Shown piece after piece: positions 3,127 to 22,913 of a DNA stretch of 22,913 nt. This DNA comes from a virus. A model generated the notes under the pieces. The model saw nothing but the letters and a program-made list of their open reading frames with translations, did not search any database and was not told the DNA's origin. Position numbers and translations under genes: made by a program. Position 1 is the first letter of the stretch. Every line of letters starts with the position of its first letter. The stretch spans positions 1-22,913 of the IMG/VR virus record IMGVR_UViG_3300032753_000182, one strand, 5' to 3'.

Positions 3127-3129
3127 CTT

Positions 3130-3744
3130 ATGGCACTACTTGGATCACCCCGGACCACGCCGCCCGACGGCTGGACCTATACGCAGGCCGAGACCCAGAC
3201 GCGCATGGAGGACATCGACGGCCTCGACGCGCTCGGCGCCATCGTCGTCAAGCACCGCCAATATAAGGGACTGCCCCGCGCCACGCAAGAAGAAGCAGAA
3301 TTGGACATCCAGCGCCAGATTTGCGCGCAGATGCCGCCGGGAATATGCCGCGCCGAGCCGGGCGAGGACTACAAGCCCATGCTGGACCAATCGCGCCGGC
3401 TGACCCTCGACAAGATTCAGTCGTTCTCGCAGGCCATCTTTGAATGGGTGCGGACGGGCGGTGACTTCGTGGACGAGGAGGAGGCGCAGCGCCGGGCGAA
3501 AATCTGCCTCGGCTGCCCGTTCAACAAGGCCCCGAACGCCTGCGCCTGCTCGCCGCTCTGGATGCTCATTAAGACCCTCGTGCCGAAAAAACGGCAGATC
3601 GACAACCTGCATGTCTGCGGAATTTGCGGATGCGTGAACTCGGTCGCCGTGCTTATGCCGTTGACTGTAATCAAAGAATCGTTACGCGGGAGAGACCTTA
3701 CTTATCCGAGTCACTGCTGGAAAAAAGTCATAGATGGCCTCTAA
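3130..3744 (+). CDS. Cys-rich, putative zinc-binding phage protein between terL and portal
   Basis: A 204-aa protein. The N-terminal half is acidic and helical. The C-terminal half carries a cysteine array: C126-x2-C129, C138-x-C140, C163-x2-C166-x-C168, and C196 in a terminal CW. That spacing suggests two zinc sites or a compact treble-clef or ribbon fold. Similar Cys-rich proteins with CxxC, CGC and a terminal CW are, from memory, found beside terminase genes in uncultured phages, but their function is not established. It starts 3 bp after terL, and its last 11 bp overlap the portal start. A role in packaging or early head assembly is inferred only from position. Confidence 0.75.
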   Translation: MALLGSPRTTPPDGWTYTQAETQTRMEDIDGLDALGAIVVKHRQYKGLPRATQEEAELDIQRQICAQMPPGICRAEPGEDYKPMLDQSRRLTLDKIQSFSQAIFEWVRTGGDFVDEEEAQRRAKICLGCPFNKAPNACACSPLWMLIKTLVPKKRQIDNLHVCGICGCVNSVAVLMPLTVIKESLRGRDLTYPSHCWKKVIDGL

Positions 3745-6309: not shown

Positions 6310-6312
6310 CCC

Positions 6313-7662: not shown

Positions 7663-7988
7663 TGCAAGGCAGCATGTTCAGGAACGCGGACGGCTGGGTG
7701 AACGATCCCCTCTCGGGGATTTTGCAACCATTTATGAGTTCCCTCATTCCGGCGGTCTTTGGGCCGCAGAATATTCCGTACCTGAACGCGGTCACATCGC
7801 TGACCGGCACCGGAACCAATGCGCTTGCGGCGGTCCCCACTGTCCTCCTGACCACACCCTTCATCGTGAAAATCGCCGTCACGGGCGACCAAGATTACAT
7901 GCTGGTGGCCGGCGTGAAAACCGGCTCCGGCTATCTGGCCCCGAACGACCAAGCTTCCTCCGGCAAAACATGGATGTCCCTGAGCTAA
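7662..7988 (+). CDS. 108-aa small structural protein in the capsid-gene slot
   Basis: The N-terminal half is hydrophobic and helical (SGILQPFMSSLIPAVFG). The C-terminal half is beta-rich (VPTVLLTTPFIVKIAVTGDQ, then YMLVAGVKTGSGYLAPND) and ends in a Trp-containing tail. The beta half recalls the small beta domains of phage head-fibre, decoration or fibre-tip proteins, a resemblance from memory and not confirmed. It sits between scaffold and adaptor, exactly where a major capsid protein is normally encoded, but is far too short for an HK97-fold shell protein. A decoration or head-fibre protein is the best guess. It starts in TGATG with the scaffold stop, and the adaptor gene follows after 1 bp. 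Confidence 0.7.
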   Translation: MQGSMFRNADGWVNDPLSGILQPFMSSLIPAVFGPQNIPYLNAVTSLTGTGTNALAAVPTVLLTTPFIVKIAVTGDQDYMLVAGVKTGSGYLAPNDQASSGKTWMSLS

Positions 7989-7989
7989 G

Positions 7990-9036
7990 ATGAACCGCTT
8001 CACCTACGGAGACTTGCAGCCCGAAATCGCCCGCATTGCCGGCGCGTCCGGGATGCCCGTTTCCGATGCCCGCGTGATGGCCTACACGAATTTGGCGACA
8101 CAGGAATTGATGAACGAATGGGACTGGCCGCAGCTCATCGTGCGGATGAAGTTCAAGGTCACGACCAACCGGATCAACGTCCCGTCGGAATTCGACCGCA
8201 TCATCTCGCTCATGGTGAACGGCGTTCCACTACCCATGCAGTCTCCATGGTTTGAGTTTGTCGGCTACGGCCCCGGATTCCCCAAGGTGTATGGCGCAAC
8301 CGCCGAATATCTGGACCAAACCGAGTTGCAGCAACTGGAAGGGGTGCTCGACAAAGAACAGGTGGCGACCTTCGAGGACATTCCCTCGGACGGCACGGTC
8401 TATTATCCGACCGTGACCTGCGCGGCGAGCGAATTGGTCAACGGAGTGCGCCCCTACATCATCATTCAGGGCTATGACCAAAACGGTCAGTGGATTCGCA
8501 CGCTCGATGCCGCCGGGTCCGGCGCCTATATCGACGGCGTGCAACTGGCCCTGAACGGCGACGCGACGCCGTTTTCGACCTCCTCGACTCAGGCATTCTC
8601 GCAGGTCACGGCCATCCTGAAGCCGGTCACGAACGGGGCGGTCTCGCTCTATGTGACCAATGCGGTGAACAACGTGGTTTTCCTCGGCCAATACGCGCCC
8701 TACGACACGCGGCCCTTCTACCGCCGCTATTCGATCCCGAACCTGACCTACGGCACGACCTACTGCATTCTGGCGCGCCTGCGGAAACGGTACACGCCGA
8801 TTTATTCGACGGGCGACTTTCTCCTGATCCCGAATTTGGCCGCGCTCTCGACAATGGTGCAGGCCGTGTTTTTCCGCGAGGCGCAGAATTTCCAGTTGTA
8901 CGAGCAATACAAGGCTTCGGCGGTGGACATCCTGAAAAAAGAGATGACGGCCTACATCGGCAAGCAGGCGCAGAAGCCGCTCATCACCGTGAACGAGGGC
9001 ATGGGCATCCGGCGCGACGGCAACTATATCCTGTGA
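7990..9036 (+). CDS. putative head-tail adaptor protein (gp11-like)
   Basis: A 348-aa protein. The N-terminus (YGDLQPEIARIAG, then DARVMAYTNLATQELMNE and WDWPQ) has the short-helix pattern of podoviral adaptors that ring the portal. It is followed by a beta-rich insertion with SPWFEFVGYGPG (near residue 85), a middle domain starting ATFEDIP and containing IIIQGYDQNGQWIRT, then RPFYRRYSIPN (about 241-251), and a C-terminal helix bundle (SAVDILKKEMTAY). The same block order is, from memory, a widespread uncharacterised family in environmental phages, always near a nozzle protein. Role: joins portal to tail nozzle. A different virion-structural role cannot be excluded. No signal peptide or catalytic motif is seen. 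Confidence 0.72.
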   Translation: MNRFTYGDLQPEIARIAGASGMPVSDARVMAYTNLATQELMNEWDWPQLIVRMKFKVTTNRINVPSEFDRIISLMVNGVPLPMQSPWFEFVGYGPGFPKVYGATAEYLDQTELQQLEGVLDKEQVATFEDIPSDGTVYYPTVTCAASELVNGVRPYIIIQGYDQNGQWIRTLDAAGSGAYIDGVQLALNGDATPFSTSSTQAFSQVTAILKPVTNGAVSLYVTNAVNNVVFLGQYAPYDTRPFYRRYSIPNLTYGTTYCILARLRKRYTPIYSTGDFLLIPNLAALSTMVQAVFFREAQNFQLYEQYKASAVDILKKEMTAYIGKQAQKPLITVNEGMGIRRDGNYIL

Positions 9037-9042
9037 CCCCCG

Positions 9043-11082: not shown

Positions 11083-11083
11083 C

Positions 11084-12907
11084 ATGGCCCCCGATTGGAT
11101 TCCAGCCGACCAAACCGTCCTGAATGACGGCATCAATTCCGCTTTCCGGCCCGACCAAATCGGGCAGGCGCAGGCGGCATGGGCATCAAATATCTCCATC
11201 CGCGACGGGAAGCCGCGCACCCGCGGATTTGGATTGGTGCAGCGGGCGATTTTGCCGAAAGGTCAGGTGCAGGGGGCCGGTTTTTTCAGCGCGGATCAGG
11301 GCATGTTCATCCTTTCTATTTGGGGACAGCTCTGGAGGCTGCTCGTCAACGGGAACAATGTCACCATCGACCAGATACCGCTCGGCTTTGTCAATTCGCC
11401 GATTATCCAGCAGGTCTGGATGTGCGAGACGGCGGGCAGCTTTCTCGTGCAGGACGGCCAATCGGCTTGCATCATTTACGACGGGTCGGTGACGCGCCGG
11501 GCCGATCCGACCATTCCCGAGGTTCCAATTGGGACCATGATGGCCTACGGCAACGGCCGGCTGGCCGTGGTGGTGCAGGGGGCTGGGAATCAGGTGCAGG
11601 TGGGCAACATCACATCGGACATTTTCCAGTCGGAACTCCAGTTCACGGAAACGATCTACCTTTCAGGCGGCGGCTCTTTCCTGTTCCGCACGCCGGTCAA
11701 CGCCCTTTCGTTCCTGCCGGTGAACAACACGGACACGGGCTACGGCAGCCTGATTGTGCTCGGGGACAAATACGTCAACAGCCTTGGGCTGCAGATCACC
11801 GCCCGCGAACTCTGGGACCAGATTCCGGGGTTCGAGCAGGTCTTGTTGCCGAAGATCGGCGCTGCGGGTCAGGACGCCGTGATCGGCGTGAACCAAGACC
11901 TTTACTGGCGCGATCCAAACGGCCAGATTTGGTCCCTGCGGGCGGCGCAGTGGGACGCCCTCAGCCCCGGCAATTCCCCGCTTTCCCGCGAAGTGTCCCG
12001 CGTGGTCGGGTACGAGACAACGAACCAATTGGACGTGAGCGGAGGCATCTTCTTCAACAACCGCATCCTGTTCCTTGCGAGCCCGTTCAACAATCTGTTT
12101 GGCGCCACGTCGTTCAAGTATCTGATTTCCTTGGACACGGCCCCGCTTTCGACGATGCGCGGCAAGTCGCCTCCGTCTTACGACGGCGTGGCCGAAGGGT
12201 TGCAGTTTGTGAAGATTTTTGCCGGCAGCCCGAACGGGGTCGATCGCGCCTTTGCCATTTCGACCGACCCGGACGGCGAAAACCGCTTGTGGGAAATCGT
12301 CACGAACGCCGTGGCCGACGCCTCCATCCTGTCAGGCGGACTAACCCAGAACTCCATCACGAGTTACTACGAGAGCCGCCGTTTCGATTGGGGTTCGCCG
12401 GGGCAGAAAAAGAAGCTCATGCGGCTGGATATTTGGCCCTGCGAACTGCAGGGCGTCACGACCATCACCGCCTACTATCGGGCTGACAACCGCAGCCAGT
12501 GGCAGCCATGGGGGCCTTCCCTCACGGTGGATGCCCAGATGACCAACAATGCGGGCCAGTGGTACGACCTGCAGGCGCAGGAACGGGGCCGCGTGAAGTC
12601 GTTCACGATGGTGGACGGCACCGACGCCATTGACCAATCGCCGCTTAACGTCGGTTACGGGTTTCAGGTCCGCATCGTCTGGGATGGCTACCTCCTGATG
12701 GACCGGATCAAGCTCTGGTCCAAGCCCGTGCCCGAGACCGATTATTCCGAGCAGGGGGACATGGTGGCGAGCGGTCTCCAAAATGTCGTGACAAACAACG
12801 ATATTTCCTACTCCATCCCCGTCGGCGGCCTCGGCAGCGCCTACACTGACCAGAACGGCAACGGATATGTGGACCAAAACGGAATCCCGTATACGAAACA
12901 GCCGTAA
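11084..12907 (+). CDS. putative tail nozzle / tail tubular protein (gp12-like)
   Basis: A 607-aa beta-rich protein. Blade-like blocks recur through residues about 50-450, for example GAGFFSADQGMFILSIWG, VPIGTMMAYGNGRLAVVVQG (from 147) and GGGSFLFRTPVNALSFLP, then IFFNNRILFLASPFNN. This matches the propeller-like plan of podoviral nozzle proteins. Later come SYYESRRFDWGSPGQKKK and IWPCELQGVTTITAYYR, then FQVRIVWDGYLLMDRIKLW (about 527-545). It ends in two YxDQNG units (TDQNGNGYVDQNGIPY). In T7-like particles gp12 forms the tail tip below gp11 and carries the fibres. The role here is assigned from architecture and from its closeness to the adaptor. It starts 1 bp after the tailspike stop. Confidence 0.75.
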   Translation: MAPDWIPADQTVLNDGINSAFRPDQIGQAQAAWASNISIRDGKPRTRGFGLVQRAILPKGQVQGAGFFSADQGMFILSIWGQLWRLLVNGNNVTIDQIPLGFVNSPIIQQVWMCETAGSFLVQDGQSACIIYDGSVTRRADPTIPEVPIGTMMAYGNGRLAVVVQGAGNQVQVGNITSDIFQSELQFTETIYLSGGGSFLFRTPVNALSFLPVNNTDTGYGSLIVLGDKYVNSLGLQITARELWDQIPGFEQVLLPKIGAAGQDAVIGVNQDLYWRDPNGQIWSLRAAQWDALSPGNSPLSREVSRVVGYETTNQLDVSGGIFFNNRILFLASPFNNLFGATSFKYLISLDTAPLSTMRGKSPPSYDGVAEGLQFVKIFAGSPNGVDRAFAISTDPDGENRLWEIVTNAVADASILSGGLTQNSITSYYESRRFDWGSPGQKKKLMRLDIWPCELQGVTTITAYYRADNRSQWQPWGPSLTVDAQMTNNAGQWYDLQAQERGRVKSFTMVDGTDAIDQSPLNVGYGFQVRIVWDGYLLMDRIKLWSKPVPETDYSEQGDMVASGLQNVVTNNDISYSIPVGGLGSAYTDQNGNGYVDQNGIPYTKQP

Positions 12908-12926
12908 ATCGGAGTAGCGCATCCTC

Positions 12927-13502
12927 ATGGCACGTTTTTCAGGAAATCCGCAGAAGTCACCCCTCGCCGGCAATGAGGACATTGCGGCGACCGACCCGTC
13001 CACGGGAAACGACATTGCGATCACGCCGCTTGTCATCACGCAGTTTGTGGCGACGAATATGGCGCTGGCGTCAGGCTCGACCAACGGCCTGATCGACGCA
13101 GCAAGCTATGCGAAGCTCCTTGCGCTGGATACGCAGGCGCAGACCAACGTGCGCGTCGGGCAACTGGCCGAGATGCCCTTCCCGATTTTCTTCTCCACGC
13201 CGGCCAATGGCACTTTTGTCATCTACCAGCACGTCCTCGACATCGCCATCCAGCTTCAGCTCGGCTGGTTCTTCTGCTCGGCCGGTTCCACGAACATCAC
13301 CATCCTGAAGAATGGCGCGGCGATCCCCGGCTTCACGAGCGTGCCGGCGACGACGGTTCCGGCCCAGTATTCCGTGTCGGGCGGCTCGACCAACTGGACC
13401 TTCAACCTTGGGGACATCCTCTCCATCAACTTCGCGGGCACGACGGGCAATTGCGCCAACGTCGGGGCTTCGCTCAGGGCCAATGGACAAATCTCCCCAT
13501 GA
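12927..13502 (+). CDS. short tail-fibre-like protein with C-terminal beta domain
   Basis: A 191-aa protein. The N-terminus (NEDIAATDPSTGNDIAITPL) resembles particle-attachment segments of phage fibres that list a parameter tag. Residues about 50-75 (GLIDAASYAKLLALDTQAQTN) match the widespread fibre motif of the MSAADKTKLDGIAAGA type. The C-terminal 100 residues are beta-rich with two cysteines (FFCSAGSTNITILKNGAAIPG, ending ASLRANGQIS), like a small jelly-roll receptor-binding or C1q-like tip. It follows the nozzle gene after 19 bp, the largest gap in the operon, and overlaps the PKD gene by ATGA. Likely a secondary fibre or adaptor; the receptor is unknown. Confidence 0.65.
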   Translation: MARFSGNPQKSPLAGNEDIAATDPSTGNDIAITPLVITQFVATNMALASGSTNGLIDAASYAKLLALDTQAQTNVRVGQLAEMPFPIFFSTPANGTFVIYQHVLDIAIQLQLGWFFCSAGSTNITILKNGAAIPGFTSVPATTVPAQYSVSGGSTNWTFNLGDILSINFAGTTGNCANVGASLRANGQISP

Positions 13503-13813
13503 TGGCGGCGGCAATCATTGCGGGCGGTGCGCTCTCGGGCGGCGGGGCCGCGCCGGGCGCCCCCGTGGCGGCCATCGCCGTGGACGACCCGTTTTCAAAT
13601 GTCGGGCAAACCTCCCTTTTCACGGACAATTCCACCGGGCATCCGACTTCATGGGTTTGGTCCATGAACGGCTCGCTGTTCTCGACGGCGCAAAACCCGA
13701 CGTTCTATTGGAGCAGCCCCGGCAGTTACATCATCACGATGACCGCAACCAACTCCTTCGGCAGCAGCACGTCGTCGCCGCTCACCGTCACCGTGTATAA
13801 CTACGCCCCGTAA
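13499..13813 (+). CDS. small PKD-domain protein, probably virion-displayed
   Basis: A 104-aa protein starting at ATGATG, overlapping the previous stop. The frame is open further upstream to 13451, but that start would overlap the fibre gene by 52 bp, so 13499 is preferred. The hydrophobic Ala/Gly N-terminus (MMAAAIIAGGALSGGG) could be a short membrane or signal-like segment. Residues about 30-100 form one PKD/Ig-like domain with the hallmark blocks TSLFTDNSTG, TSWVWSMNG, NPTFYWSSPGSYIITMTATN and a final strand TVTVYN. Single Ig-like domains occur on phage tails and capsids and are thought to bind carbohydrate weakly. It lies between two fibre genes, so surface display is inferred. Confidence 0.75.
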   Translation: MMAAAIIAGGALSGGGAAPGAPVAAIAVDDPFSNVGQTSLFTDNSTGHPTSWVWSMNGSLFSTAQNPTFYWSSPGSYIITMTATNSFGSSTSSPLTVTVYNYAP

Positions 13814-13816
13814 ACC

Positions 13817-14602
13817 ATGTCCGGCCTGACCCTATTTCTCTCTCCCGGCACCGTTCCAGCGAATGATCCGCTGCCGTCCAGCGCGCAGGCGTTGGTCAAT
13901 TACATTTCGGCGTACACGAATATCGCGGGCGCGACCGGATTCAATGGGATAAACTTCGGGCCAAATACTCCGGCTCCCCAAAATCGCAGCCTCCCTTGGT
14001 TCAAGACCGACACGAGCGGAAACCCCATCGGGCTTTTCTCGTGGAACGGGACCGCATGGACTACGATTCCGACGCAGGTTTCGACCGGCCCGACCAGTTC
14101 GCGTCCGGCCACCCCCAGCGACGGATCGGAGTATTACGATACGACGATTCGATGCCTCATTATCTGGAACGCGGCGGCCTCCAACTGGACCACGGCCGCG
14201 GGGAGCATCGGCGACCTGAAGGAAGTCACGGCGACAACCTTGGCGGCGGCGCTCACGGCCAATCCCGGCTGGCAGCAGCATACCGCATCGAGCGGGTGCG
14301 TGATCGGCGGGGCCGACGTGAACACGAACGGCCCGGCAAGCGCCCATGCGGCCGGAACGCTGATTGGCGAGGAGAGCCACCTGCAGGCGGTATCCGAACT
14401 GCCGGCGCATACGCATCCCGAAATTTACGGCACGAACACCGGGTCGTTCCAAAACGGCCCGCAGGCGAGCGGCGTTTATCCGGCGGTGACGCCCGGTTCG
14501 ACCTCGATCCCCGTGGCGAGCACCGGCAGCACGGGCAGCGGCACGGCGTTCAATGTGATCCAACCCACGGCGTATTTTTATCGTTTATACAAAGCATATT
14601 GA
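13817..14602 (+). CDS. tail fibre protein with C-terminal collar-type (HTH-motif) domain
   Basis: A 261-aa protein. The first half has SLPWFKTDTSGNPIGLFSWNG and an EYYDTTIRCLIIWNAAASNW segment, short repeated Trp-containing tags common in fibre shafts. The second half contains GEESHLQAVSELPAHTHPE (about 183-201), the AHTH metal-binding motif of phage tail collar or receptor-tip domains, and ends GTAFNVIQPTAYFYRLYKAY, the usual closing motif. In such fibres the histidines bind iron along the trimer axis; here this is inferred from the motif. It is one of three adjacent fibre-type genes after the nozzle and may be the receptor-contacting tip or a spacer. Confidence 0.78.
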   Translation: MSGLTLFLSPGTVPANDPLPSSAQALVNYISAYTNIAGATGFNGINFGPNTPAPQNRSLPWFKTDTSGNPIGLFSWNGTAWTTIPTQVSTGPTSSRPATPSDGSEYYDTTIRCLIIWNAAASNWTTAAGSIGDLKEVTATTLAAALTANPGWQQHTASSGCVIGGADVNTNGPASAHAAGTLIGEESHLQAVSELPAHTHPEIYGTNTGSFQNGPQASGVYPAVTPGSTSIPVASTGSTGSGTAFNVIQPTAYFYRLYKAY

Positions 14603-14603
14603 A

Positions 14604-15110
14604 ATGGTCGCCGAAGAAAACTTTTCCGAAAAGCTGAAGCGCCTCGACGGGGCGGTGGCGCAGCTTCCCCAGCTTACGATGAAGCTCTCGCACAGTTTCA
14701 TCCGCGATTCGGACACGGGGCTTATTCTGTACGTCCGCGAAGTCATGCTGCCGGCATTGCCTTTTCCTGATGCGGCCATTTACACGACGCGGACACATCG
14801 CAAGGAATCGCCCTTCACGATTTTGCGCGGTCGCGTCATCGTGGTGGACGACAAGGGCAACCAGACGGAAATGCGGGCTGGGCATCGCGGGGTAAATCTG
14901 GCCGGCACCAAGCGGGCCATCATCGTCTTGGAGGACACTGTTTGGGCGACCTATCACATCACGCGCCACACAAACGTCGCCGAGATTGAGCGCGAACTTG
15001 CCATTGAGCCCGAAGCCATCCGCGGGCCGGACGGGTCATGCTGCATTCCCGATGAGCAGCCGTTTCTTTTTGTGTCCGATTCCATCACCGCAATCCCGCA
15101 ACTAAAATGA
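14604..15110 (+). CDS. cupin-like beta-barrel protein in the tail-fibre region
   Basis: A 168-aa protein. The central part looks like a small double-stranded beta-helix: GLILYVREVMLPA, THRKESPFTILRGRVIVVDD, AGHRGVNLAGTKRAIIVLED, TVWATYHITRHTN. The block order fits a phage-specific cupin-like family that I recall beside tail-fibre genes. Of the usual cupin metal ligands, one or two histidines are visible (H65, H94), not a full set, so catalysis is doubtful and a structural or chaperone role is more likely. A helical tail (AEIERELAIEPEAIRG) follows the barrel. It starts 1 bp after the fibre stop and overlaps the next gene by ATGA. Confidence 0.55.
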   Translation: MVAEENFSEKLKRLDGAVAQLPQLTMKLSHSFIRDSDTGLILYVREVMLPALPFPDAAIYTTRTHRKESPFTILRGRVIVVDDKGNQTEMRAGHRGVNLAGTKRAIIVLEDTVWATYHITRHTNVAEIERELAIEPEAIRGPDGSCCIPDEQPFLFVSDSITAIPQLK

Positions 15111-16237
15111 GCGAGGAATGGCCACTTCAACAGCAGGAGGAGCAGCAGCAAAAAACGCTGGGGCTGGGCGCGGCGGCGTTTGCCGGCTTGGCTGGAACCG
15201 CCCTGACTGCCGGGGCGAAGGTTTATAGCGCGTCGCAAAACAAGACGCAGGCCCCCGCCACGGTTCCCTACCAAAACGTCGATCCCACGCAGGTCCAGAA
15301 CAATTCGATTCAGGGGGATTTGGGCAGCCTCGCATCGGCCTCGCAGTTGTCGGGGTCGGTGAACACGACGACAGCGCAACAGGCCCTTGCGGCGCGGAAT
15401 ATCACCCAGCCCGGCTACTCGAATCTAGCGGGAGCCCTCAGCTCGCAGGCGACCTCGCTGGCCCAGAATCCCTATCAGGTGCCGCAGAGCGTCGTGGACC
15501 AGCTTTCGCAGTATGCCGCCGAGAACAACATCGGAGAGGGCACCGGGGCGAGCAGCGGGTTCTCGCAGAGCAATCTGCTCCGCAGCCTTGGCATCAACGC
15601 GCTGCAATATGGGCAAACCAATCTAAGCGCCGCGACCTCGGCACTTTCGACCCTTTCAGGCACCGCCCCGAACGTGAACCCCACTTCACCGCTTTCGTTC
15701 CTGCTCACGCCCTCGCAGGCGTTGCAGACCCAGACGACAAACAACACTAACAACCAGCAGATCGGTCAGGGCGCGGCCAACGCCGCTGCAGCGGCCGCGA
15801 ACTCGAATAGCAACAATTTGTGGGACTCGATCACGAGCCAGATCAGCCCGCTTTCAAGCGCGATCCAAAACGCGATTACGCCTAGTGGCGGCGGAAACAG
15901 TGGCGGCGGAAACAGTGGCGGCGGAAACACCGGTCCGGGTTCCACCAATGGAATGCTTGCTGCTGGCGCACCGAACTCCCTTGCGCTCAGGTCTGGAACC
16001 TCATGCTGGGTGGCGCGGGCGGTGTTTGGCGAACGTGACCCACGCTGGCGCCGTTGGCGCAAATGGTTTTTCTCATCGGCGCCGCGTTGGTTCCTTCGTA
16101 TCTATATGCGCTACGGGCGGACTTGGGCTGCGTTTATCAACCGCCACCCTGCTCTGAAGCCGATCCTCGCCGTTTGGATGAATCGCTGCATTGCCACAAT
16201 CAAGTGGAAACCTGATTGCGTGGCCACCCCCGCCTGA
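15107..16237 (+). CDS. internal virion-type protein with a C-terminal CFI-box-like domain
   Basis: A 376-aa protein in three parts. Residues 1-40 contain a Gln-rich start and a small hydrophobic Gly/Ala segment (LGLGAAAFAGLAGTALTAG) that could touch membranes. Residues 45-258 are rich in Gln, Asn, Ser and Ala, helical and low complexity, as in ejection or internal head proteins. A Gly-Asn-Ser linker (260-278) then leads to a distinct basic, Trp-rich domain at 300-362 starting CWVARAVFG and continuing DPRWRRWRKWFF, APRWFLRIYMRYG and HPALKPILAVWMNR. This pattern resembles the C-terminal CFIATAAYG (CFI-box) domain found on assorted bacterial proteins, whose function is unknown. Its Arg/Trp content contrasts sharply with the rest, suggesting a module joined by the linker. 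Confidence 0.65.
   Translation: MSEEWPLQQQEEQQQKTLGLGAAAFAGLAGTALTAGAKVYSASQNKTQAPATVPYQNVDPTQVQNNSIQGDLGSLASASQLSGSVNTTTAQQALAARNITQPGYSNLAGALSSQATSLAQNPYQVPQSVVDQLSQYAAENNIGEGTGASSGFSQSNLLRSLGINALQYGQTNLSAATSALSTLSGTAPNVNPTSPLSFLLTPSQALQTQTTNNTNNQQIGQGAANAAAAAANSNSNNLWDSITSQISPLSSAIQNAITPSGGGNSGGGNSGGGNTGPGSTNGMLAAGAPNSLALRSGTSCWVARAVFGERDPRWRRWRKWFFSSAPRWFLRIYMRYGRTWAAFINRHPALKPILAVWMNRCIATIKWKPDCVATPA
15884..15928 (+). repeat. three perfect 15-bp tandem copies encoding SGGGN
   Basis: The unit AGTGGCGGCGGAAAC occurs three times in a row without change, giving a flexible Ser-Gly-Gly-Gly-Asn linker. The identical codons indicate recent slippage expansion. It separates the low-complexity region from the C-terminal CFI-like domain. 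Confidence 0.95.
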
Positions 16238-16238
16238 C

Positions 16239-17486
16239 ATGCCCGTCCTCTCCCCAGAATTTCAAGACCCGACCGCGCAGGCGCAGACGACCCTTGCCGC
16301 CGAGCAGCAGGGGAACAACAACGTCACGGCGCAGCAGAACTGGATGACGCAGGCGGCGCAGCGGGCGCAGATCGGAGCCAATACCGCCGAAACGCAGCAA
16401 AACACGCAACAACAGGCTGCTCAATTTGCCGCGTTGCTGCCGGTGCTTCAGGCGAAAAGCCAAGCCGATGTGATAACGCAGCAAAATGACCTTGCCGCCG
16501 CAATTGCGATCCAAAATATGCGGGCCAGTTTTCAGTCAATGAAACCGGATGTCGTTAAAGACATCGCTCAGATCAACGATCCGAAGAATGTCCCAAAAGA
16601 GCCCGATGGAACGCCTGATTGGAATGCAATCTCTAACAAATACGAGAATCTGCAGGCCAAATACGCGGGCTTGGCGCTGCTGCCCGAGAGCAAGCAATAT
16701 TACGACATGATCGAGCAGGGGAAGAAGAACGCTTACGATTTGGCGGCGCGTCATACGCAAGCGCAGCTCACGCTCAATCAAATGAAGCTGGGCGCGCAAT
16801 ATCGCGTGCAGGGCCAAGAGGCCGTGCAGGGCAACAAGGCGGCGCTCGACGCCCAAACCAAGCCCGCCGTCGCCCAGACCGAGGCCATCAACAAGGAGCG
16901 CAATCAGGACTTCAATGACATCTCGAACCAGCGTGATGCGCTGGGACAAATGAACTTTTACATTTCCAAGCTGGGCGACGATTTGAAGGCTGAGCAGGCT
17001 TCCCCCGTCGCCGCCGGAGCCTCGCGGATTCTCGGTCCGGGCTTGGTCGGCAAGGTGAGCGATCCTGTGCGCCAAGTGCAGCAGGACATCGGCGACTTCG
17101 CGACGAACATCATGTCGAAGGTGAAGAACATCCGAAACATCAATGAATTTAACGCGGTGACGGCGTCCCTGCCGCATGCGGATGACCAACCCTCCGTCCA
17201 GAACCAGAAACTGGAAAAGCTGCAGCAGGTGAATCAGGTCTTGAGCCAGCGGAACGACTACATGGAAAAGGCGCTGCGCGGCAACCCGAGCATCACCCGC
17301 GACCAAGCGGACCTGCAGGCGACGCAGCAATACCCGTTCCCGAACAAAATCCTTGCGCCGGCCATTTTCGCCAATCCGCCTAAAAGCATGACCGACCAAG
17401 ACCGGACGGCGCTGGAGTATGCGAAAAGCAACCCGAACGACCCGAAGTCGGCCCTCATCATCCAGCATTTGAGCACGCTTCAATGA
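16239..17486 (+). CDS. Gln/Asn-rich internal virion (ejection-type) protein
   Basis: A 415-aa protein from ATG 16239, one base after the previous stop. An in-frame ATG at 16191 would add 16 residues and overlap the upstream gene by 47 bp without a better ribosome site. It is almost wholly helical, with Gln-rich N-terminal repeats (AQTTLAAEQQGNNN, AETQQNTQQQAAQFA), a central coiled-coil-like region, and a C-terminus containing YAKSNPNDPKSALIIQHL, an ending often seen in phage ejection or internal proteins. No enzymatic motif or Cys is seen. Position before the largest membrane-like protein suggests the two work together in DNA ejection, as T7 gp14-16 do; this is inference. Confidence 0.65.
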   Translation: MPVLSPEFQDPTAQAQTTLAAEQQGNNNVTAQQNWMTQAAQRAQIGANTAETQQNTQQQAAQFAALLPVLQAKSQADVITQQNDLAAAIAIQNMRASFQSMKPDVVKDIAQINDPKNVPKEPDGTPDWNAISNKYENLQAKYAGLALLPESKQYYDMIEQGKKNAYDLAARHTQAQLTLNQMKLGAQYRVQGQEAVQGNKAALDAQTKPAVAQTEAINKERNQDFNDISNQRDALGQMNFYISKLGDDLKAEQASPVAAGASRILGPGLVGKVSDPVRQVQQDIGDFATNIMSKVKNIRNINEFNAVTASLPHADDQPSVQNQKLEKLQQVNQVLSQRNDYMEKALRGNPSITRDQADLQATQQYPFPNKILAPAIFANPPKSMTDQDRTALEYAKSNPNDPKSALIIQHLSTLQ

Positions 17487-17487
17487 A

Positions 17488-19560
17488 ATGGCCAACTTTG
17501 ACCCGGATGCCTACCTAGCGAGTGTCCAAGCCCCCGCGCCCGTCCAAGCGCCGGCGGGGGCGGCGGCGCAGCCTTCGGCTCCGACCCAGACCACTTCCAG
17601 CGCACAGGCGCAGCCGGCCTCGGCATCCAGTGGGAATTTCGACCCTGACGCCTACCTTCACGGCGCATTTCAAGCCCAGCAGGCCCAATCGGCGCAGGCC
17701 ATGCCGACCAGCCGTATTCCGACCCTGAGCGCCGTTCCCGAGCAGGGCACTTGGGACAAGATCAAGACCGAGTTGCGGAACGCCATCAGCCCGATCATCG
17801 GAGAAACGGACGATCAGCGGCTTGCCCGCGAGCAAAGTCTGTCCCAATTGCGGGACATCAGCCCGACGCTGGCCGCCGCCGCTGAAAGCGCCATCAGTCC
17901 CGAACAGAAGGAGGTTCAGGCGCACGGCGCAGTCGGAGCCTTCGGCAGGGGTATTGACATGGCCCTGCAGGGCGGGGGCGCCACCGCGGGGGCAACGCTT
18001 GGCGCGGCAACCGGCCCGGCCGCTCCCGTCATGGTTCCGCTTCTCGCGGGTTTGGGCTCGGCGGGCGGCGACTACCTCGCCCAGCGCCGCAGAATCGCGC
18101 AGGATGAGCAGGACAAGGTTCATCCGGGCGAATTGGCGGCCGCTGGCATCGTTGGGGCCATCCCCGGGGGCTCTTTATCGGGAACCAGCACAGCAAGTCG
18201 AGCACTTGAAGAATTTGGCGTGAGTAAAGCCGGAAGTTCATTAATAACGGAAGGTGCGAAACAGGGTTTAGGAGGTCTTGCCGCCGAAACGACCCGCTCC
18301 GTCATTGATGACGACCAGCTTCCGACGATCCGCAATGCCGCATGGTCGGCCATCCTGCCGGCGTTGTTCGGCTCCGTGTCCGAGCACGTCCAGCAGACCA
18401 ATCCCGAAATCATGGCGGCGCGGGCGGCGGCCGAGGGCAAGATTGCATCAAAGGTGGCAACCCTGCAGGCCGGTCAGGATCTCGGCATGGTGGTCCAGCC
18501 CTCGAAGGTCAACCCCTCGATGGCCAACAAGGCGATTGATAGCCTTGCGGGCGGTCCCTCCATCCGGCAGGCGGCCACGCACATCAATCAGGACGTGGCT
18601 AACGACGTAGCGCGGCGCGTCTTGAGCCCCACAAACCCCGACGTGGACCTGACTTCCGACTTGGCCAAGGCGGTGCGCCAGCAGGCATATCAGGCCGGCT
18701 ACGCCCCCGTCGCGGCGGCCGGCACGATCCCGACCGATGCCCAATTTCATACTGCGCTGGACGGCCTCACCGCCAAATATCGAGGTGCGGCCCGGTCGTT
18801 CCCCGGCGCCACCAACCCGCAGGTCGAGTTGTTGGTCAAGGGGGTGGACGTGAACAATTTCGATGCCGGCGACGCCATCAGCCAGATCCAAATTCTGCGC
18901 GACCAGGCATCGGATGCCTTTCAGCAGGGCAATACCAGCGTGGGGCAGGCCGCCCGCGGCGCCGCCAAGGCGATCGAGGATCAGATTGAGCGCCACCTGA
19001 CCAACCAAGCCGGCGAAGGCTACGGCGCTTCGCAAACCCTGCAGGATTTCCGCGACGCCCGCACGCTCATGGCCCAATCGCATGCCATCGAGGATGCCAT
19101 CCGCGAGGGCGGCAGCTCGGTGATCCCGTCCGTGCTCGCCCGGAAAGCCCAGAATCAGGCCCCCTTCACCGGCCCGCTGAAAACCATTGCTGACTTCGCC
19201 AACAATTTTTCGTCCACGACGCGGGAAGGGGCCAAGACGCCCGTTCCGGGCACGACCGTCACGGGCAACGCCGGCCGCGTGGTCATGGGCACGCTTTTGG
19301 GCGGCGCGACTGCCACGACCACGCACAGCCCCGTGGCGGCGACACTGGCGGCGGCGGCTGGAGTCCTACTTCCGAGCGTCCGCGGATTGGTGCGGTCCAT
19401 GGTCCTGTCGAAGCCCTACCAGCGCATCATGGCCAAGCTTCCCGTCAACGTGGAAGCGAATCCTGATTTGGGCTCGCTGATTATCCGGCAGGGCGGTCAG
19501 GCCGCCGCGCTGCAGGGCAATTCTAACGCGGCACCAGCGACTCCAGCTTCAGGCGAATAG
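17488..19560 (+). CDS. large ejection-type protein with Gly/Ala membrane-like segments
   Basis: A 690-aa protein, last gene of the rightward operon. The motif FDPDAYL occurs twice (4-10 and 50-56), separated by a Pro/Ala/Gln linker; this short tag recurs in podoviral internal proteins and may be a docking peptide. Gly/Ala-rich hydrophobic stretches lie near 164-196 (GATLGAATGPAAPVMVPLLAG), 214-230 and 597-637 (VVMGTLLGGATATTTHSP and VAATLAAAAGVLLPSVRG), compatible with insertion into the host envelope during ejection. The middle (about 330-560) is helical and charged. No lysozyme, transglycosylase or protease signature was found, so cell-wall digestion is not claimed. The 3' end overlaps the convergent GT9 gene by 38 bp. 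Confidence 0.68.
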   Translation: MANFDPDAYLASVQAPAPVQAPAGAAAQPSAPTQTTSSAQAQPASASSGNFDPDAYLHGAFQAQQAQSAQAMPTSRIPTLSAVPEQGTWDKIKTELRNAISPIIGETDDQRLAREQSLSQLRDISPTLAAAAESAISPEQKEVQAHGAVGAFGRGIDMALQGGGATAGATLGAATGPAAPVMVPLLAGLGSAGGDYLAQRRRIAQDEQDKVHPGELAAAGIVGAIPGGSLSGTSTASRALEEFGVSKAGSSLITEGAKQGLGGLAAETTRSVIDDDQLPTIRNAAWSAILPALFGSVSEHVQQTNPEIMAARAAAEGKIASKVATLQAGQDLGMVVQPSKVNPSMANKAIDSLAGGPSIRQAATHINQDVANDVARRVLSPTNPDVDLTSDLAKAVRQQAYQAGYAPVAAAGTIPTDAQFHTALDGLTAKYRGAARSFPGATNPQVELLVKGVDVNNFDAGDAISQIQILRDQASDAFQQGNTSVGQAARGAAKAIEDQIERHLTNQAGEGYGASQTLQDFRDARTLMAQSHAIEDAIREGGSSVIPSVLARKAQNQAPFTGPLKTIADFANNFSSTTREGAKTPVPGTTVTGNAGRVVMGTLLGGATATTTHSPVAATLAAAAGVLLPSVRGLVRSMVLSKPYQRIMAKLPVNVEANPDLGSLIIRQGGQAAALQGNSNAAPATPASGE

Positions 19561-20659
19561 TCTCGGGCTTGATCGCGGCCAGTTCCGTGCAGATGCCGGT
19601 CTTGTTGCACGGGCCATCCGGCGGGAAAAGTGGCAGGCCGGTGTGGTGCGTATGGAAGCAGGGTGCCAGCCTGCAGCCGCCCTCCGCAATCAACGCGAAC
19701 ACGCTCTCATAGTAGGCGGTGCGCAGCTTGTAGGGGAATGGTCCGAACAGGGCGACGCAGGGAATATCCAGCGTCCCGGCGGCGTGCATCATCGAACTGT
19801 CGGGGGCCAGCACGGCATCGCAGGTCGTCAGAAAGGCGCAGGTCTGTCGGAACGTCAGGCCGAGCCGCGTCGTGTCGATCATGCCCTTGGGCAATTCGGA
19901 ATCGACGCGGAACTCGCCCGGACTGCCGACAAGGCAGATTTCCCACCCGTCGATAATCATTTCGTTGAGCATCGAGGGACGCTTGCCGTTCACTTTCCCC
20001 TCCCTCGGTGCGGACAACTGCGAGATGGGATAGGATCGGGCGCGCACGCCGGCCTGAACCTGCAGCGCCAACCGGCGGACACCCTTTTCCTTGGTGAAGG
20101 TTTTCTCGGCCCATTCGCGTTCGTCGCCGGACAGGGCCAATTCGGGCTTCTTGTTGTCCGTCCACTCCTCGCCTTTCCGGAAAAGCCCAAGGTGCTGCGC
20201 GAAACGGTCGGTCATGTGCATCGCCCTCGCCATCAGGTTGAACTCGACGGAGTGCTCCAGCGTGAGCACCTGCCCGAAGTCTTGCAGCACTTCAAGGCGC
20301 GGCGGGTAGTCCACGAACCCGTCAACGTAGGGCAGGTTGAAAAACACCTGCCGCGTGGGCTCGAAGCAGGAGAGGTTGATTTCGGCTTTCGGGTTGCGCC
20401 GCTTCATCTCCCGCAGGACCGGGATCAGCATGAAGGCGTCGCCGTAGCCCATCGGGTAGATTATAAGAATGCGCTCGGGAGACCATAATACATCGCTGAT
20501 GGCTTGAGTCCCCTGTTTGTAGGGCGTCACCGTCGGTCGCAACGCCTGAAAGGCCAGCGCCATTTCGTGCGCGTTGGCATCGGTGCAGACGAGACTGCCG
20601 GGCTTAACGCCGCCGTGCGCGGCGACTTCGGGGGAGTCGGGAAAGGTTAGGATGTGCAT
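19523..20659 (-). CDS. glycosyltransferase family 9-like (heptosyltransferase-type)
   Basis: A 378-aa protein. The start at 20659 is chosen because GGAG lies 4 bases upstream and the ATG shares its A with the upstream TAA stop. A frame open to 20860 would only cover the GNAT gene. GT-B layout: the N-terminal nucleotide-fold half starts ILIIYPMGYGDAFMLIPVLREM (65-86), the GT9 opening where heptosyltransferases read GDxxxxxP. The C-terminal donor site is APDSSMMHAAGTLDIPCVALFG (285-306), the hallmark D-S-x-x-M-H-x-A-A motif. A cysteine-rich tail (C329, C334, C351, C357) is unusual. The sugar donor may be an ADP- or other NDP-sugar; specificity cannot be read. It is the last gene of the leftward cassette. 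Confidence 0.82.
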   Translation of the reverse strand: MHILTFPDSPEVAAHGGVKPGSLVCTDANAHEMALAFQALRPTVTPYKQGTQAISDVLWSPERILIIYPMGYGDAFMLIPVLREMKRRNPKAEINLSCFEPTRQVFFNLPYVDGFVDYPPRLEVLQDFGQVLTLEHSVEFNLMARAMHMTDRFAQHLGLFRKGEEWTDNKKPELALSGDEREWAEKTFTKEKGVRRLALQVQAGVRARSYPISQLSAPREGKVNGKRPSMLNEMIIDGWEICLVGSPGEFRVDSELPKGMIDTTRLGLTFRQTCAFLTTCDAVLAPDSSMMHAAGTLDIPCVALFGPFPYKLRTAYYESVFALIAEGGCRLAPCFHTHHTGLPLFPPDGPCNKTGICTELAAIKPETIRLKLESLVPR

Positions 20660-21126
20660 TATTCTCCGGTCTCCGAGGGCAGACGTTTCATGGCGGTAAA
20701 TTCCTTGTAACCGAACTTCCGGTACAAATCGTGGGCGTCCCGCGTGGCCAGCATACAGGCCCGCGGTTTCACGTCGGGATGCTGGTGCAAATGCCACATC
20801 AGGAACTTGCCGAGGCCCTTCCCCTGATGCTCTTTCGCAATCAGCACGTCGCAAATCCACGCGAAGGTCGTGTAGTCGGTGACGACGCGGGCGAAACCAA
20901 CCTGAATGTCCTTCGGCTTCTGTTCATCCTTCTTCTCCCAGACGGCGTGCTTGAACACCCCGGCGCAGATCGAATAGTCCATCGACTTGAGGATGGTCAT
21001 GGGCGTGCGCCAGCTTCCCCAGTAGGAATGCTGGATTTCGCGGATCACAAAGGTTGGGTCGATCAGCGCCTTGTCGAAGCTGATGTAGTAATCTTTTCCG
21101 GGGGGCGTGGCGTCGAAGTCTTTCAT
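20659..21126 (-). CDS. GNAT-family N-acetyltransferase
   Basis: A 155-aa protein of normal length for a single GNAT domain. It transfers acetyl from acetyl-CoA to an amine. Motif order: ISFDKALIDPTFVIREIQ (15-32) and SYWGSWRTP (34-42) at the N-terminus, the beta-strand block QVGFARVVTDYTTFAWICDV (75-94), the CoA pyrophosphate loop QGKGLG (101-106), and motif B DLYRKFGYKEF (133-143). This block order is typical of a common bacterial GNAT subfamily. The substrate is unknown; in a cassette with two glycosyltransferases an amino-sugar is plausible but inferred. The start overlaps the methyltransferase stop by ATGA, and the stop is joined to the GT9 start by TAATG. Confidence 0.9.
   Translation of the reverse strand: MKDFDATPPGKDYYISFDKALIDPTFVIREIQHSYWGSWRTPMTILKSMDYSICAGVFKHAVWEKKDEQKPKDIQVGFARVVTDYTTFAWICDVLIAKEHQGKGLGKFLMWHLHQHPDVKPRACMLATRDAHDLYRKFGYKEFTAMKRLPSETGE
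20664..20667 (-). promoter_or_regulatory. ribosome binding site deciding the GT9 start
   Basis: On the minus strand GGAG is followed by AATA and ATG at 20659. This supports the 378-aa start over the longer open frame. Confidence 0.55.
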
Positions 21127-21695
21127 AGGGAAATTCCGGCCAGTTTCAGGACTTCCGCAACCGTGGGCGTCGGCTCATCGCGGAACTTCCACGCGAAGAA
21201 GGCGCCCAACGCGGCTTCACCAGAGAAGATATGATAGCGGCGATAGACGAGACATTCCCAATTCAACCCGCTGAACTCGCCGGGCATCCATGACGACTTG
21301 TGCGCGTCGGGATGCGTCGCATTCGGCTGCTCGTGGTACGGCCCAAGCGGCGTGAAGATGAACCGCGCCTTGCAGAGCGCGTCCATGTCGGCGAGCAGCC
21401 GCCGCGCCGGCTGCTTCGGCAGGTGCTCGATCACGTCCGACATAATCATCAGGTTGTAGTTGAACTGCGCGAGAATTTTCGGGGCGTCGAGAATGTCGGC
21501 CTTCATCGTCTTGCCCGGCGCCGTCGGGCGCACCACGAGGTCCATGTAAACGCCGTCCCATTCTTTCGTGACGTGCCCCTCGCCGACGCCAAGGTCCACG
21601 ATGGGGTTGCCGCCGGCCATCTTGTAGATCGCGGTCAGGATCGCCTTGTATTCCTCAAAGCAACCGGGGCGGTCGGTATAGACGGGTTCCCTCAT
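21123..21695 (-). CDS. class I SAM-dependent methyltransferase
   Basis: A 190-aa protein with a Rossmann-type methyltransferase core. Motif I is IVDLGVGEG (32-40), which binds S-adenosylmethionine. The acidic strand-2 end is the region VYMDLV (49-54), motif II/III is ADILDAP (66-72), and the motif IV region is MSDVIEHLPK (85-94), the DxxEHL signature of small-molecule and sugar methyltransferases. TPLGPYHEQPNATHPDAHKS (115-134) is a substrate-side block similar to those of phage and polysaccharide-cluster methyltransferases. The target is unknown; the cassette suggests a sugar, but a protein is possible. It overlaps both neighbours by ATGA. Confidence 0.85.
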   Translation of the reverse strand: MREPVYTDRPGCFEEYKAILTAIYKMAGGNPIVDLGVGEGHVTKEWDGVYMDLVVRPTAPGKTMKADILDAPKILAQFNYNLMIMSDVIEHLPKQPARRLLADMDALCKARFIFTPLGPYHEQPNATHPDAHKSSWMPGEFSGLNWECLVYRRYHIFSGEAALGAFFAWKFRDEPTPTVAEVLKLAGISL

Positions 21696-21853
21696 TTGAT
21701 GAAGCGGCCCTTGGAATCCCGAAGCCGGAGGCGTCCATCCTTGACCCCCAGTTCATAATTCATGTCCAGCATAGCACGATGGGTTTCCTTCGTTTGTATC
21801 ACGAGGTCAGACTTCGGCTTGAGCCAAAGGATGATGTTGTCGCGGAGTTTCAT
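21692..21853 (-). CDS. 53-aa basic protein inside the sugar-modification cassette
   Basis: MKLRDNIILWLKPKSDLVIQ begins the protein, and its basic ending is LRLRDSKGRFIK. Both ends are coupled: ATG 21853 overlaps the GT2 stop by ATGA, and its stop overlaps the methyltransferase start by ATGA. That double coupling is strong support for a real gene of this size. The frame is open up to 22021, but that would overlap the GT2 gene extensively. No family is recognised. The C-terminal KDGRLRLRDSKGRFIK recalls short phage DNA-binding or nucleic-acid tails (xGRFxK), yet no function is claimed. Confidence 0.6.
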   Translation of the reverse strand: MKLRDNIILWLKPKSDLVIQTKETHRAMLDMNYELGVKDGRLRLRDSKGRFIK

Positions 21854-22674
21854 GGATTCAGCGTATGCCTGCGCTCCGTCAGCCACTCGTTGACGTAGGG
21901 CGCGAATTTTCGGTTGCAGGGGATCAGGGGTTTGCCCTCGGGGAATGGTGAGAGTGCGACCCACGATTCGCCAGTCTGCTCGGCTTGGCGCAGGCGGGAG
22001 TCGTATGTATTCATGAGCCACCCCTGCATAACTCGGGACTTTTTCAGGAACTCCGGCTGCTTCCGTAGGAACCCCAGATGGATAATCGCCATGTTGTCGC
22101 CGTTGACCGCGGTGCGCCGAATCTCCGGCTCACCTTCGGGCCGCGGTTCGTCGCTGCACATTTCCATGCGGGTAGGCGCCAGCCGGACAACACGCTCGCC
22201 GCATACGGTCCCATGCGGGGCTTCCGATTGCGGCGATTTCCAGAGGTTCACGCGGTTCATCCAGCAGGGATAGCCGTACTCAATGGCCGGCTTGATGTAG
22301 GGATAAGAGCCCTCATCCAGCACTTCGTCACCGTCGAGGGTGATTTGCCACGAGTAGCGGCACGCCTTTCGGCCCGCTTCGAGCCATGGAATAAGCATGA
22401 CGGGGTTGCCGGGAGGCCGTGTGAGATCATCGCGCTCGACTTCCTCCGGCGTCGGCAAACGCGGAATCTCGTAATGAACGATGCGCAGCTTCGGCTCCCA
22501 TTGCGCCCATTCCTCGAAGAACGGCAGCGTGTTGTCAGTCGATCCGCCGTCAACGATGATGACCTCGTTGCAGATGGGCAGGAGCGAGCGGACACTGAGC
22601 TGCGCGCAGTAGTCTAGCTCGAAGTTGTTTTTGATCGGGATGTAACCCGAGAGCCCCGGCAGAAGATCACTCAT
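21850..22674 (-). CDS. glycosyltransferase family 2 (GT-A fold)
   Basis: A 274-aa protein. NDP-sugar binding is shown by ICNEVIIVDGGSTDNT (34-49), the canonical GT2 block, and the metal-binding DxD by ITLDGDEVLDE (111-121), with D114 and D116. Before it, GRKACRYSWQ fits the usual upstream helix. After residue 130 the acceptor half has Trp/Met-rich segments (YPCWMNRVNLWKS) and IIHLGFLRKQPEFLKKS. No membrane segment is present, so it is probably cytosolic, and acceptor and sugar are unknown. The start overlaps the upstream 67-aa gene by 8 bp and the stop overlaps the 53-aa gene by ATGA. Confidence 0.88.
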   Translation of the reverse strand: MSDLLPGLSGYIPIKNNFELDYCAQLSVRSLLPICNEVIIVDGGSTDNTLPFFEEWAQWEPKLRIVHYEIPRLPTPEEVERDDLTRPPGNPVMLIPWLEAGRKACRYSWQITLDGDEVLDEGSYPYIKPAIEYGYPCWMNRVNLWKSPQSEAPHGTVCGERVVRLAPTRMEMCSDEPRPEGEPEIRRTAVNGDNMAIIHLGFLRKQPEFLKKSRVMQGWLMNTYDSRLRQAEQTGESWVALSPFPEGKPLIPCNRKFAPYVNEWLTERRHTLNP

Positions 22675-22870
22675 AGTAGTTGGCCCCGAGCGGGTCGGCG
22701 CGTTTCGTGAATTGGGTTGGCGGACGGCAGAGTGCCATCGTGCCGAAAATGGCGACGGGGATTAGGCCGCATTCCTCGACAGCCTGAACGACGAGATACG
22801 GCACGGTCAGCGCAAGATACTTCGACGACTCGCTCTTGTGGAATGCTCCGTTTAGGCGGGGGTCTTGCAT
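22667..22870 (-). CDS. 67-aa protein with a hydrophobic middle, unknown function
   Basis: The start is well supported: on the minus strand AAGGAGG lies 4 bases before the ATG. The protein has a polar N-terminus (MQDPRLNGAFHKSESSKYL), a hydrophobic stretch from ALTVPYLVVQ to VAIFGTMAL that could form a single membrane helix or a buried core, and a tail ADPLGANYYE. The length and the downstream glycosyltransferase resemble small phage proteins of unknown role. It overlaps the end of the gene before it by 19 bp and the GT2 start by 8 bp. Confidence 0.65.
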   Translation of the reverse strand: MQDPRLNGAFHKSESSKYLALTVPYLVVQAVEECGLIPVAIFGTMALCRPPTQFTKRADPLGANYYE

Positions 22871-22913
22871 AGAACCTCCTTCAGTTGGGCGATGACCGCA
22901 TCAACGCTGATAT
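22852..22913 (-). CDS. C-terminus of a gene running off the right edge
   Basis: Reading leftward from the window edge, the frame gives ISVDAVIAQLKEVLCKTPA followed by TAA at 22852-22854. The helical ending and the position of the next gene's ribosome site inside it fit the tightly packed cassette. Only 19 residues are visible, so identity is unknown. Confidence 0.4.
   Translation of the reverse strand, partial: ISVDAVIAQLKEVLCKTPA
22875..22881 (-). promoter_or_regulatory. strong ribosome binding site nested in an upstream coding end
   Basis: AAGGAGG on the minus strand, 4 bases before ATG 22870, is the best Shine-Dalgarno match in the leftward cassette. It lies within the last codons of the partial upstream frame. 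Confidence 0.7.

What the first reader, a model, noticed from the sequence alone, without database searches (positions are those of the whole stretch)
19523..22913. Compact leftward cassette: two glycosyltransferases, a methyltransferase and an acetyltransferase
Seven frames are chained by ATGA or TAATG overlaps or short overlaps. They encode GT2, GT9-like, a SAM methyltransferase, GNAT and two small unknown proteins. This looks like a dedicated system that builds and caps a decorated sugar. It could modify virion proteins, change the host surface to block superinfection, or alter nucleobases, and its genes converge on the structural operon.
Basis: partly seen in the sequence, partly recalled or inferred. 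Interest (0 to 1): 0.62.

Follow-up and report, generated by a model that had tools for sequence, protein, structure and literature searches.

The report
Phage sugar-decorating gene cassette
A metagenomic phage and at least three related phages carry, next to or inside their particle-building genes, a movable set of enzymes that build and cap a sugar; it most likely coats a phage protein with sugar, or else alters the host surface, and similar phage systems are known.

Summary
Six complete minus-strand frames and one cut by the window edge are chained by ATGA, TAATG or short overlaps. They encode a GT9, a GNAT, a probable SAM methyltransferase, a 53-aa protein, a GT-A-fold GT2 and a 67-aa protein. 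The cut gene ends like the GT2-GT9 fusion that stands in the same place in a relative, so the missing part is probably a third glycosyltransferase gene.

The cassette is phage-borne. Phage G001 (46.8 kb, TerL 65% identical) keeps GT2-GNAT-GT9 in the same order, converging on the same structural operon, without the methyltransferase. The same GT2 subfamily occurs in G003/L011, inside the head operon between terminase and portal, and in G004, divergent from terminase. A scan of 84,980 species genomes found it only on a phage contig.

No protein has a transmembrane segment. No GtrA, Tet/JBP or thymidylate-synthase/hydroxymethylase gene was found in these records. That argues against Gtr seroconversion and DNA hypermodification. 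Soluble enzymes beside late head genes favour decoration of a virion protein (about 0.45). LPS-type GT9 similarity, plus an integrase and an OafA-like acetylase in G001, keep host-surface change close (about 0.35). It is a new variant of a known kind, of moderate interest.

The parts
19523..20659 (-). GT9 (heptosyltransferase-family) glycosyltransferase, 378 aa, ATG start; keeps the catalytic-Asp loop (YGDA, D74) and the signature D287-S-S-M-M-H292; four C-terminal cysteines in C-x4-C-x16-C-x5-C spacing shared with G001
   Evidence: Pfam PF01075 34 bits, cut-off 22; PDB 1psw heptosyltransferase II E 3e-8; 42-45% identical to G001 GT9; motif scan
20659..21126 (-). GNAT N-acetyltransferase, 155 aa, acyl-CoA loop QGKGLG
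   Evidence: PF13508 41 bits; profile matches PDB 2ozh (XCC2953) E 2.6e-24; 43-46% identical in G001
21123..21695 (-). Probable SAM-dependent methyltransferase, 190 aa; absent from the G001 cassette
   Evidence: PF13489 E 0.027, below cut-off; motif I VDLGVGEG and motif IV MSDVIEHL read from the sequence; structure model unusable
21692..21853 (-). 53-aa protein, unknown, coupled by ATGA to both neighbours; absent from the G001 cassette
   Evidence: no family match above cut-off
21850..22674 (-). GT2-type glycosyltransferase of GT-A fold, 274 aa, with the phage-subfamily block SDEPRPEGEPEIR and an acidic LDGDE motif
   Evidence: PF00535 25.7 bits; AlphaFold pLDDT 79.8; Foldseek matches GT-A enzymes in PDB, best E 3.4e-9; relatives in G001, G004, L011, G003
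22667..22870 (-). 67-aa protein, unknown, strong Shine-Dalgarno AAGGAGGT before its ATG
   Evidence: no family match
22852..22913 (-). 3' end of a gene cut by the window edge; its last residues (ISVDAVIAQLKEVLCKTPA) match best the C-terminus of the GT2-GT9 fusion that precedes GT2 in G001
   Evidence: rank 1 of 213 protein C-termini, score 33 against 25 for the next; 0.0008 of shuffles reach it
17488..19560 (+). Last structural-operon gene (690 aa, N-terminal FDP motifs as in the 1335-aa protein at the same place in G001); overlaps the GT9 tail to tail by 38 bp
   Evidence: position matched in G001
3130..3744 (+). Cys-rich protein between terminase and portal; its C-terminal domain is fused to GT9 and GT2 domains in relatives G003 and L011
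   Evidence: 28% over 123 aa, E 5e-9 to L011; conserved CxxCPxN...CxxCGC...P..CW pattern

Best explanation
This is a phage-borne, soluble glycan-assembly cassette. In the cytoplasm, the GT2, the GT9 and a third enzyme just outside the window (predicted GT2-GT9 fusion) add sugars one after another to an acceptor. The GNAT N-acetylates an amino sugar of that glycan and the methyltransferase puts a cap on it. The acceptor is most likely a phage protein, a head or tail component made at the same time, so that virions leave the cell glycosylated. Shown here: the enzyme families (methyltransferase by motifs only), the operon structure, its conservation and its changing place beside or inside the structural genes of related phages, and the lack of membrane segments. 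Inferred: sugar donors, order of addition, late expression, and the acceptor.
For: GT2, GNAT and GT9 are kept in order and place in G001 while homologues have diverged to 42-58% identity. The GT2 subfamily recurs in G003/L011 (38-39%) and G004 (40%) with other GT9-GT2 fusions, methyltransferases and, in G003/L011, a polysaccharide pyruvyl transferase. In G003 and L011 the cassette lies beside the portal on its strand, in G003 between terminase and portal, so it should be made with late head proteins. In the more distant G005 a GT9/GT2/methyltransferase/sulfotransferase/epimerase cluster lies between the major capsid gene (PHROG match) and the genes downstream of it. The Cys-rich protein encoded between terminase and portal (window 3130-3744) is fused to GT9-GT2 in G003/L011. 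No cassette protein has a clear transmembrane segment and no GtrA flippase was found. GT9-like heptosyltransferases with protein acceptors exist (TibC, PMC4358343), and capsid glycosylation is reported for mycobacteriophages Che8 and Rita (cited in PMC11256854).
Against: No acceptor protein or glycan is identified. The GT9 is closest to LPS heptosyltransferases. G001 carries an integrase and an OafA-like acyltransferase, a typical host-surface modifier. In the window, G001 and G004 the cassette is on the strand opposite to the terminase operon, so it need not be late. Benler et al. (PMC8008677) read a glycosyltransferase encoded next to head genes of gut phages as host-surface modification.
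Confidence: 0.45

Rival explanations
1. Host-surface remodelling: the enzymes extend or cap the LPS core (or another lipid-linked glycan assembled in the cytoplasm) so that lysogens or infected cells no longer adsorb related phages, or so that new virions do not stick to debris.
For: GT9 resembles LPS heptosyltransferases II and III and has a heptosyltransferase-type motif DSSxxH (compare WahD D(T/S)(S/A)XXH in PMC3559599). LPS core is built in the cytoplasm, so no flippase is needed. G001 encodes an integrase (PHROG E 1.4e-17) with a tRNA-Phe-like attP candidate (read by eye) and an OafA-like acyltransferase (PF01757 83 bits); G003 has an integrase match.
Against: GT9 scores are far below the LPS equivalog cut-offs (36.6 bits against 134.6). 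In G003 the cassette sits inside the head operon. One relative was binned with an Actinomycetota MAG, a group without LPS, although binning of phage contigs is unreliable. The acyltransferase is not part of the cassette and is missing from the other four records.
Confidence: 0.35
2. DNA hypermodification: the glycosyltransferases decorate a hydroxylated base of phage DNA.
For: Phage glycosyltransferases can act on DNA (general knowledge, T4).
Against: No Tet/JBP and no thymidylate-synthase/hydroxymethylase family gene in five records. G001 is near full length by gene content. The GT families are not those of T4.
Confidence: 0.04
3. Accessory enzymes that act on a small molecule or free sugar nucleotide and change host metabolism, without a fixed macromolecular acceptor.
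For: The closest solved GNAT relatives include hypothetical proteins and plant serotonin acetyltransferases, so its substrate is not fixed by sequence.
Against: GNAT is kept beside the same GT2 and GT9 in G001, and several glycosyltransferases in one operon point to an oligosaccharide.
Confidence: 0.1

Closest known systems
Mycobacteriophage virion glycosylation (Che8 and relatives; Freeman et al. 2023, known here through PMC11256854 and PMC13313380)
   Same: Phage-encoded glycosyltransferases, in some phages with methyltransferases, proposed or shown to decorate virion proteins
   Different: Glycosyltransferases lie near the 3' end of the Maravista genome, not beside head genes; no GT9 or GNAT is mentioned in the text read; no sequence match to any cultured phage for GT2, GNAT or methyltransferase
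Gratiaviridae GT/AAA ATPase/HipA-kinase locus beside portal and capsid genes (PMC8008677)
   Same: Glycosyltransferase gene next to head genes in a metagenomic phage family, predicted to be late
   Different: One glycosyltransferase with a kinase and an ATPase; no GT9, methyltransferase or acetyltransferase set in the passages read
gtrABC seroconversion operons (P22-like phages; PMC7380047)
   Same: Phage-borne glycosyltransferases of temperate phages
   Different: gtr operons need membrane proteins GtrA and GtrB; neither clear transmembrane segments nor GtrA are found here
TibC/Aah autotransporter heptosyltransferases (PMC4358343)
   Same: Heptosyltransferases that act on protein; four-cysteine metal site in the C-terminal lobe
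   Different: Cysteine spacing differs (TibC 339/342/358/370; window GT9 329/334/351/357); the window GT9 gives no TIGR04414 match
WaaF/WaaQ LPS heptosyltransferases
   Same: GT9 fold family; best PDB and NCBIfam matches
   Different: Scores roughly 4- to 18-fold below the equivalog cut-offs

Membership tests
Gtr seroconversion operon | GtrA membrane flippase | tested here: not met
   No PF04138 match in G000, G001, G003, G004, G005
Gtr seroconversion operon | Polytopic membrane glycosyltransferase and membrane-anchored GtrB | tested here: not met
   Highest 19-residue Kyte-Doolittle mean in the window cassette proteins 1.68; 2.07 in one relative's GT9
GT9 glycosyltransferase family | Profile match above the curated cut-off and GT9 motif D-S/T-x-x-x-H | tested here: met
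   34 bits against 22; D287SSMMH
ADP-heptose LPS heptosyltransferase (WaaC/F/Q equivalog) | NCBIfam equivalog cut-off | tested here: not met
   37.6/569, 36.6/134.6, 31.6/170.2, 25.4/467 and 15.5/185.3 bits
ADP-heptose LPS heptosyltransferase (WaaC/F/Q equivalog) | Uses ADP-heptose on LPS | not testable with these tools
   Needs enzyme assay
GT2 / GT-A fold glycosyltransferase | GT-A fold with an acidic (DXD-type) metal motif | tested here: met
   Model pLDDT 79.8; PDB GT-A matches, TM about 0.4-0.5; LDGDE, with LDADE or similar in relatives
SAM methyltransferase | Curated profile match | tested here: inconclusive
   PF13489 14.6 bits against 27; motifs present by eye; structure model failed
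DNA base glucosylation system | Base hydroxylase or hydroxymethylase in the same phage | tested here: not met
   PF12851 and PF00303 absent from five records, some of them fragments
Virion glycosylation system | Sugar covalently bound to a structural protein | not testable with these tools
   Needs mass spectrometry of virions
Virion glycosylation system | Glycosyltransferases linked to structural genes | tested here: met
   Adjacent in window and G001; inside the head operon in G003

The most novel reading that the evidence does not exclude
Glycosylation is coupled to head assembly in this phage group: the Cys-rich protein made between terminase and portal (window 3130-3744) is an acceptor or adaptor that brings the glycosyltransferases to a head protein. 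In G003/L011 it is fused to them; in the window and G001 it works with a separate, movable cassette.
Probability: 0.12. Interest if true: 0.7.

Novelty: new variant of a known kind. Interest (0 to 1): 0.38.

Why it matters
Phage-encoded glycosyltransferases are common in metagenomes but few have a known target. Here one GT2 subfamily with a near-invariant signature recurs in several related uncultured phages, always near structural genes, with exchangeable capping enzymes (acetyl, methyl, pyruvyl; sulfo in the more distant G005). That gives a small, testable set for the question whether such cassettes coat virions or change the host surface.

Tried and rejected
Bacterial locus beside a prophage: rejected, because relatives have phage genes on both sides and GC3 is uniform.

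DNA hypermodification: no hydroxylase or hydroxymethylase.

Gtr seroconversion: no flippase, no clear membrane segments.

Defence system: no PADLOC match.

Methyltransferase structure from a single sequence: model unusable (pLDDT 39.7). Profile comparison with the methyltransferases of relatives: no relation seen.

Viral-contig scans with the methyltransferase, GNAT and single GT9 found nothing. Cultured phage records hold no relative of the terminase, GT2, GNAT or methyltransferase, and only a 23%-identical GT9 in two Campylobacter phages.

L016 and L017 matched the DNA pattern by chance: neither has a tblastn match to any window protein.

Foldseek's best match to peptide S-glycosyltransferases SunS/ThuS was not used as evidence for cysteine glycosylation: TM about 0.5, many other GT-A enzymes score alike.

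Full report
What is there. The window is a complete 22,913-bp virus record. Plus-strand genes from 1381 to 19560 are a structural operon: terminase large subunit by PHROG match; a portal-type protein and a proline-rich scaffold-type protein by position and by collinearity with relatives; a beta-helix protein, probably a tail spike. On the minus strand, from the right edge to 19523, lie the genes of the finding. The GT9 gene and the last structural gene overlap by 38 bp tail to tail.

What the proteins are. GT9 and GNAT pass the Pfam cut-offs; GT2 passes on a short stretch. A model of GT2 built on six phage sequences has mean pLDDT 79.8 and matches GT-A glycosyltransferases in the PDB. The GT9 profile matches heptosyltransferase II, 1psw, and the protein keeps the YGDA loop and a DSSMMH motif; the published heptosyltransferase consensus is D(T/S)(G/A)XXH, with the WahD variant D(T/S)(S/A)XXH (PMC3559599). 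Its NCBIfam scores against LPS heptosyltransferases are far below the equivalog cut-offs, so donor and acceptor cannot be named. GNAT is nearest to PDB 2ozh. The methyltransferase is called on motifs alone; its Pfam score is below cut-off and a single-sequence structure model failed.

Relatives. One GT2 relative came from IMG/VR with the single sequence: contig IMGVR_UViG_3300044680_000172 (G001, 46,765 bp). Its structural genes are collinear with the window, terminase 65%, portal 62%. It has GT2 (58%), GNAT (43%) and GT9 (42%) in the same order, converging on a large structural gene. It lacks the methyltransferase and the 53-aa gene and has a 515-aa GT2-GT9 fusion directly upstream of GT2. 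The last 19 residues of the gene cut at the window's right edge match the C-terminus of that fusion better than any of 212 other protein ends (score 33 against 25; 0.0008 of shuffles). The missing part is therefore probably this fusion.

Wider distribution. A scan of one genome per species (84,980) with the GT2 core found one hit, on a phage contig binned in an Actinomycetota MAG (L011). A DNA pattern for DEPxxEGEPE found G003 (61.9 kb, close to L011) and G004 (18.5 kb) in IMG/VR; two further pattern hits, L016 and L017, showed no similarity to any window protein. G001, G003 and G004 have terminases related to the window's (26-65%). In G003 the order is terminase, fusion of a Cys-rich domain with GT9 and GT2, polysaccharide pyruvyl transferase, methyltransferase, small protein, GT2, portal, all on one strand; L011 is nearly the same and has an extra GT2-methyltransferase fusion before the GT2. 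L011 itself starts near the fusion gene, and its terminase relative is on another contig of the same MAG. In G004 a GT2-GT9 fusion, GT2 and two methyltransferases lie divergent from terminase. A GT9 profile also found G005, whose larger cluster with sulfotransferase and epimerases follows the major capsid gene; it has no relative of this GT2. So the cassette is a phage property, it changes place, it stays near structural genes, and the capping enzymes are exchanged.

A possible link to head assembly. The protein between terminase and portal in the window (3130-3744) shares a CxxCPxN / CxxCGC / PxxCW domain with the N-terminus of the G003/L011 GT9-GT2 fusion (E 5e-9 to L011). Fusion of the same domain to glycosyltransferases suggests, but does not show, a common function.

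Mechanism. All cassette proteins look soluble, so the acceptor must be reached in the cytoplasm: a protein, or lipid A-core. A place inside the head operon in G003 and after the capsid gene in G005 implies late synthesis (inference) and favours a virion protein. Benler et al. (PMC8008677) made the opposite choice, surface modification, for a glycosyltransferase beside head genes of another family. G001 has an integrase, a tRNA-Phe-like fragment beside it (read by eye) and an OafA-like acyltransferase, the kind of gene that alters O-antigen in prophages (PMC7380047). G003 also has an integrase match. I therefore keep the two readings close: 0.45 virion protein, 0.35 host surface. DNA modification is at 0.04: neither Tet/JBP nor thymidylate-synthase family genes occur.

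Comparison with the known. It is not a gtrABC operon. It may work like the phage glycosylation genes reported for mycobacteriophages (PMC11256854, PMC13313380), but shares no detected sequence with cultured phages beyond a 23%-identical GT9 in two Campylobacter phages, and the acceptor is untested. No paper found in the library describes this gene set; the library lacks most subscription papers.

Limits. Several records may be fragments. The host is unknown. The major capsid gene was not recognised in the window or G001; a 394-aa protein beside the G001 cassette is a candidate by position only. The number of phages with this GT2 is small, so the statement about changing position rests on four arrangements (window/G001, G003/L011, G004, and the more distant G005).

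Noticed in passing
L005:7730-9943 (G001 27730-29943): A SNF2-type helicase fused to an N6/N4 DNA methylase domain in G001.
   Followed up: partly
L005:1674-2945 (G001 21674-22945): Integrase gene with a tRNA-Phe-like 3' fragment just upstream, a likely attP, plus a whole tRNA-Met gene at L005:1567-1641.
   Followed up: partly
L008:7099-15800 (G005): Large glycan cluster with a GT9-GT2-GT9 protein, sulfotransferase, cupin and two epimerases between the major capsid gene and downstream structural genes of a lower-GC phage.
   Followed up: partly
window 22667-22870: The 67-aa protein shares a 13-residue stretch (SESSKYLALTVPY) with the N-terminus of the L011 methyltransferase; not clearly above background.
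   Followed up: partly
L013:934-1764 (G004 4940-5770): A 276-aa protein of unknown family, glycosyltransferase-like by eye, stands between terminase and portal, where the window has the Cys-rich protein.
   Followed up: no
L016:7063-8052: A glycosyltransferase-like protein (by eye, GT4 type) lies upstream of portal-like genes in an unrelated phage contig.
   Followed up: no
L002:6849-8033 (G001 37218-38402): A 394-aa protein without family match lies just beyond the start of the G001 cassette, on the opposite strand; candidate capsid gene by position, predicted also to lie right of the window.
   Followed up: partly
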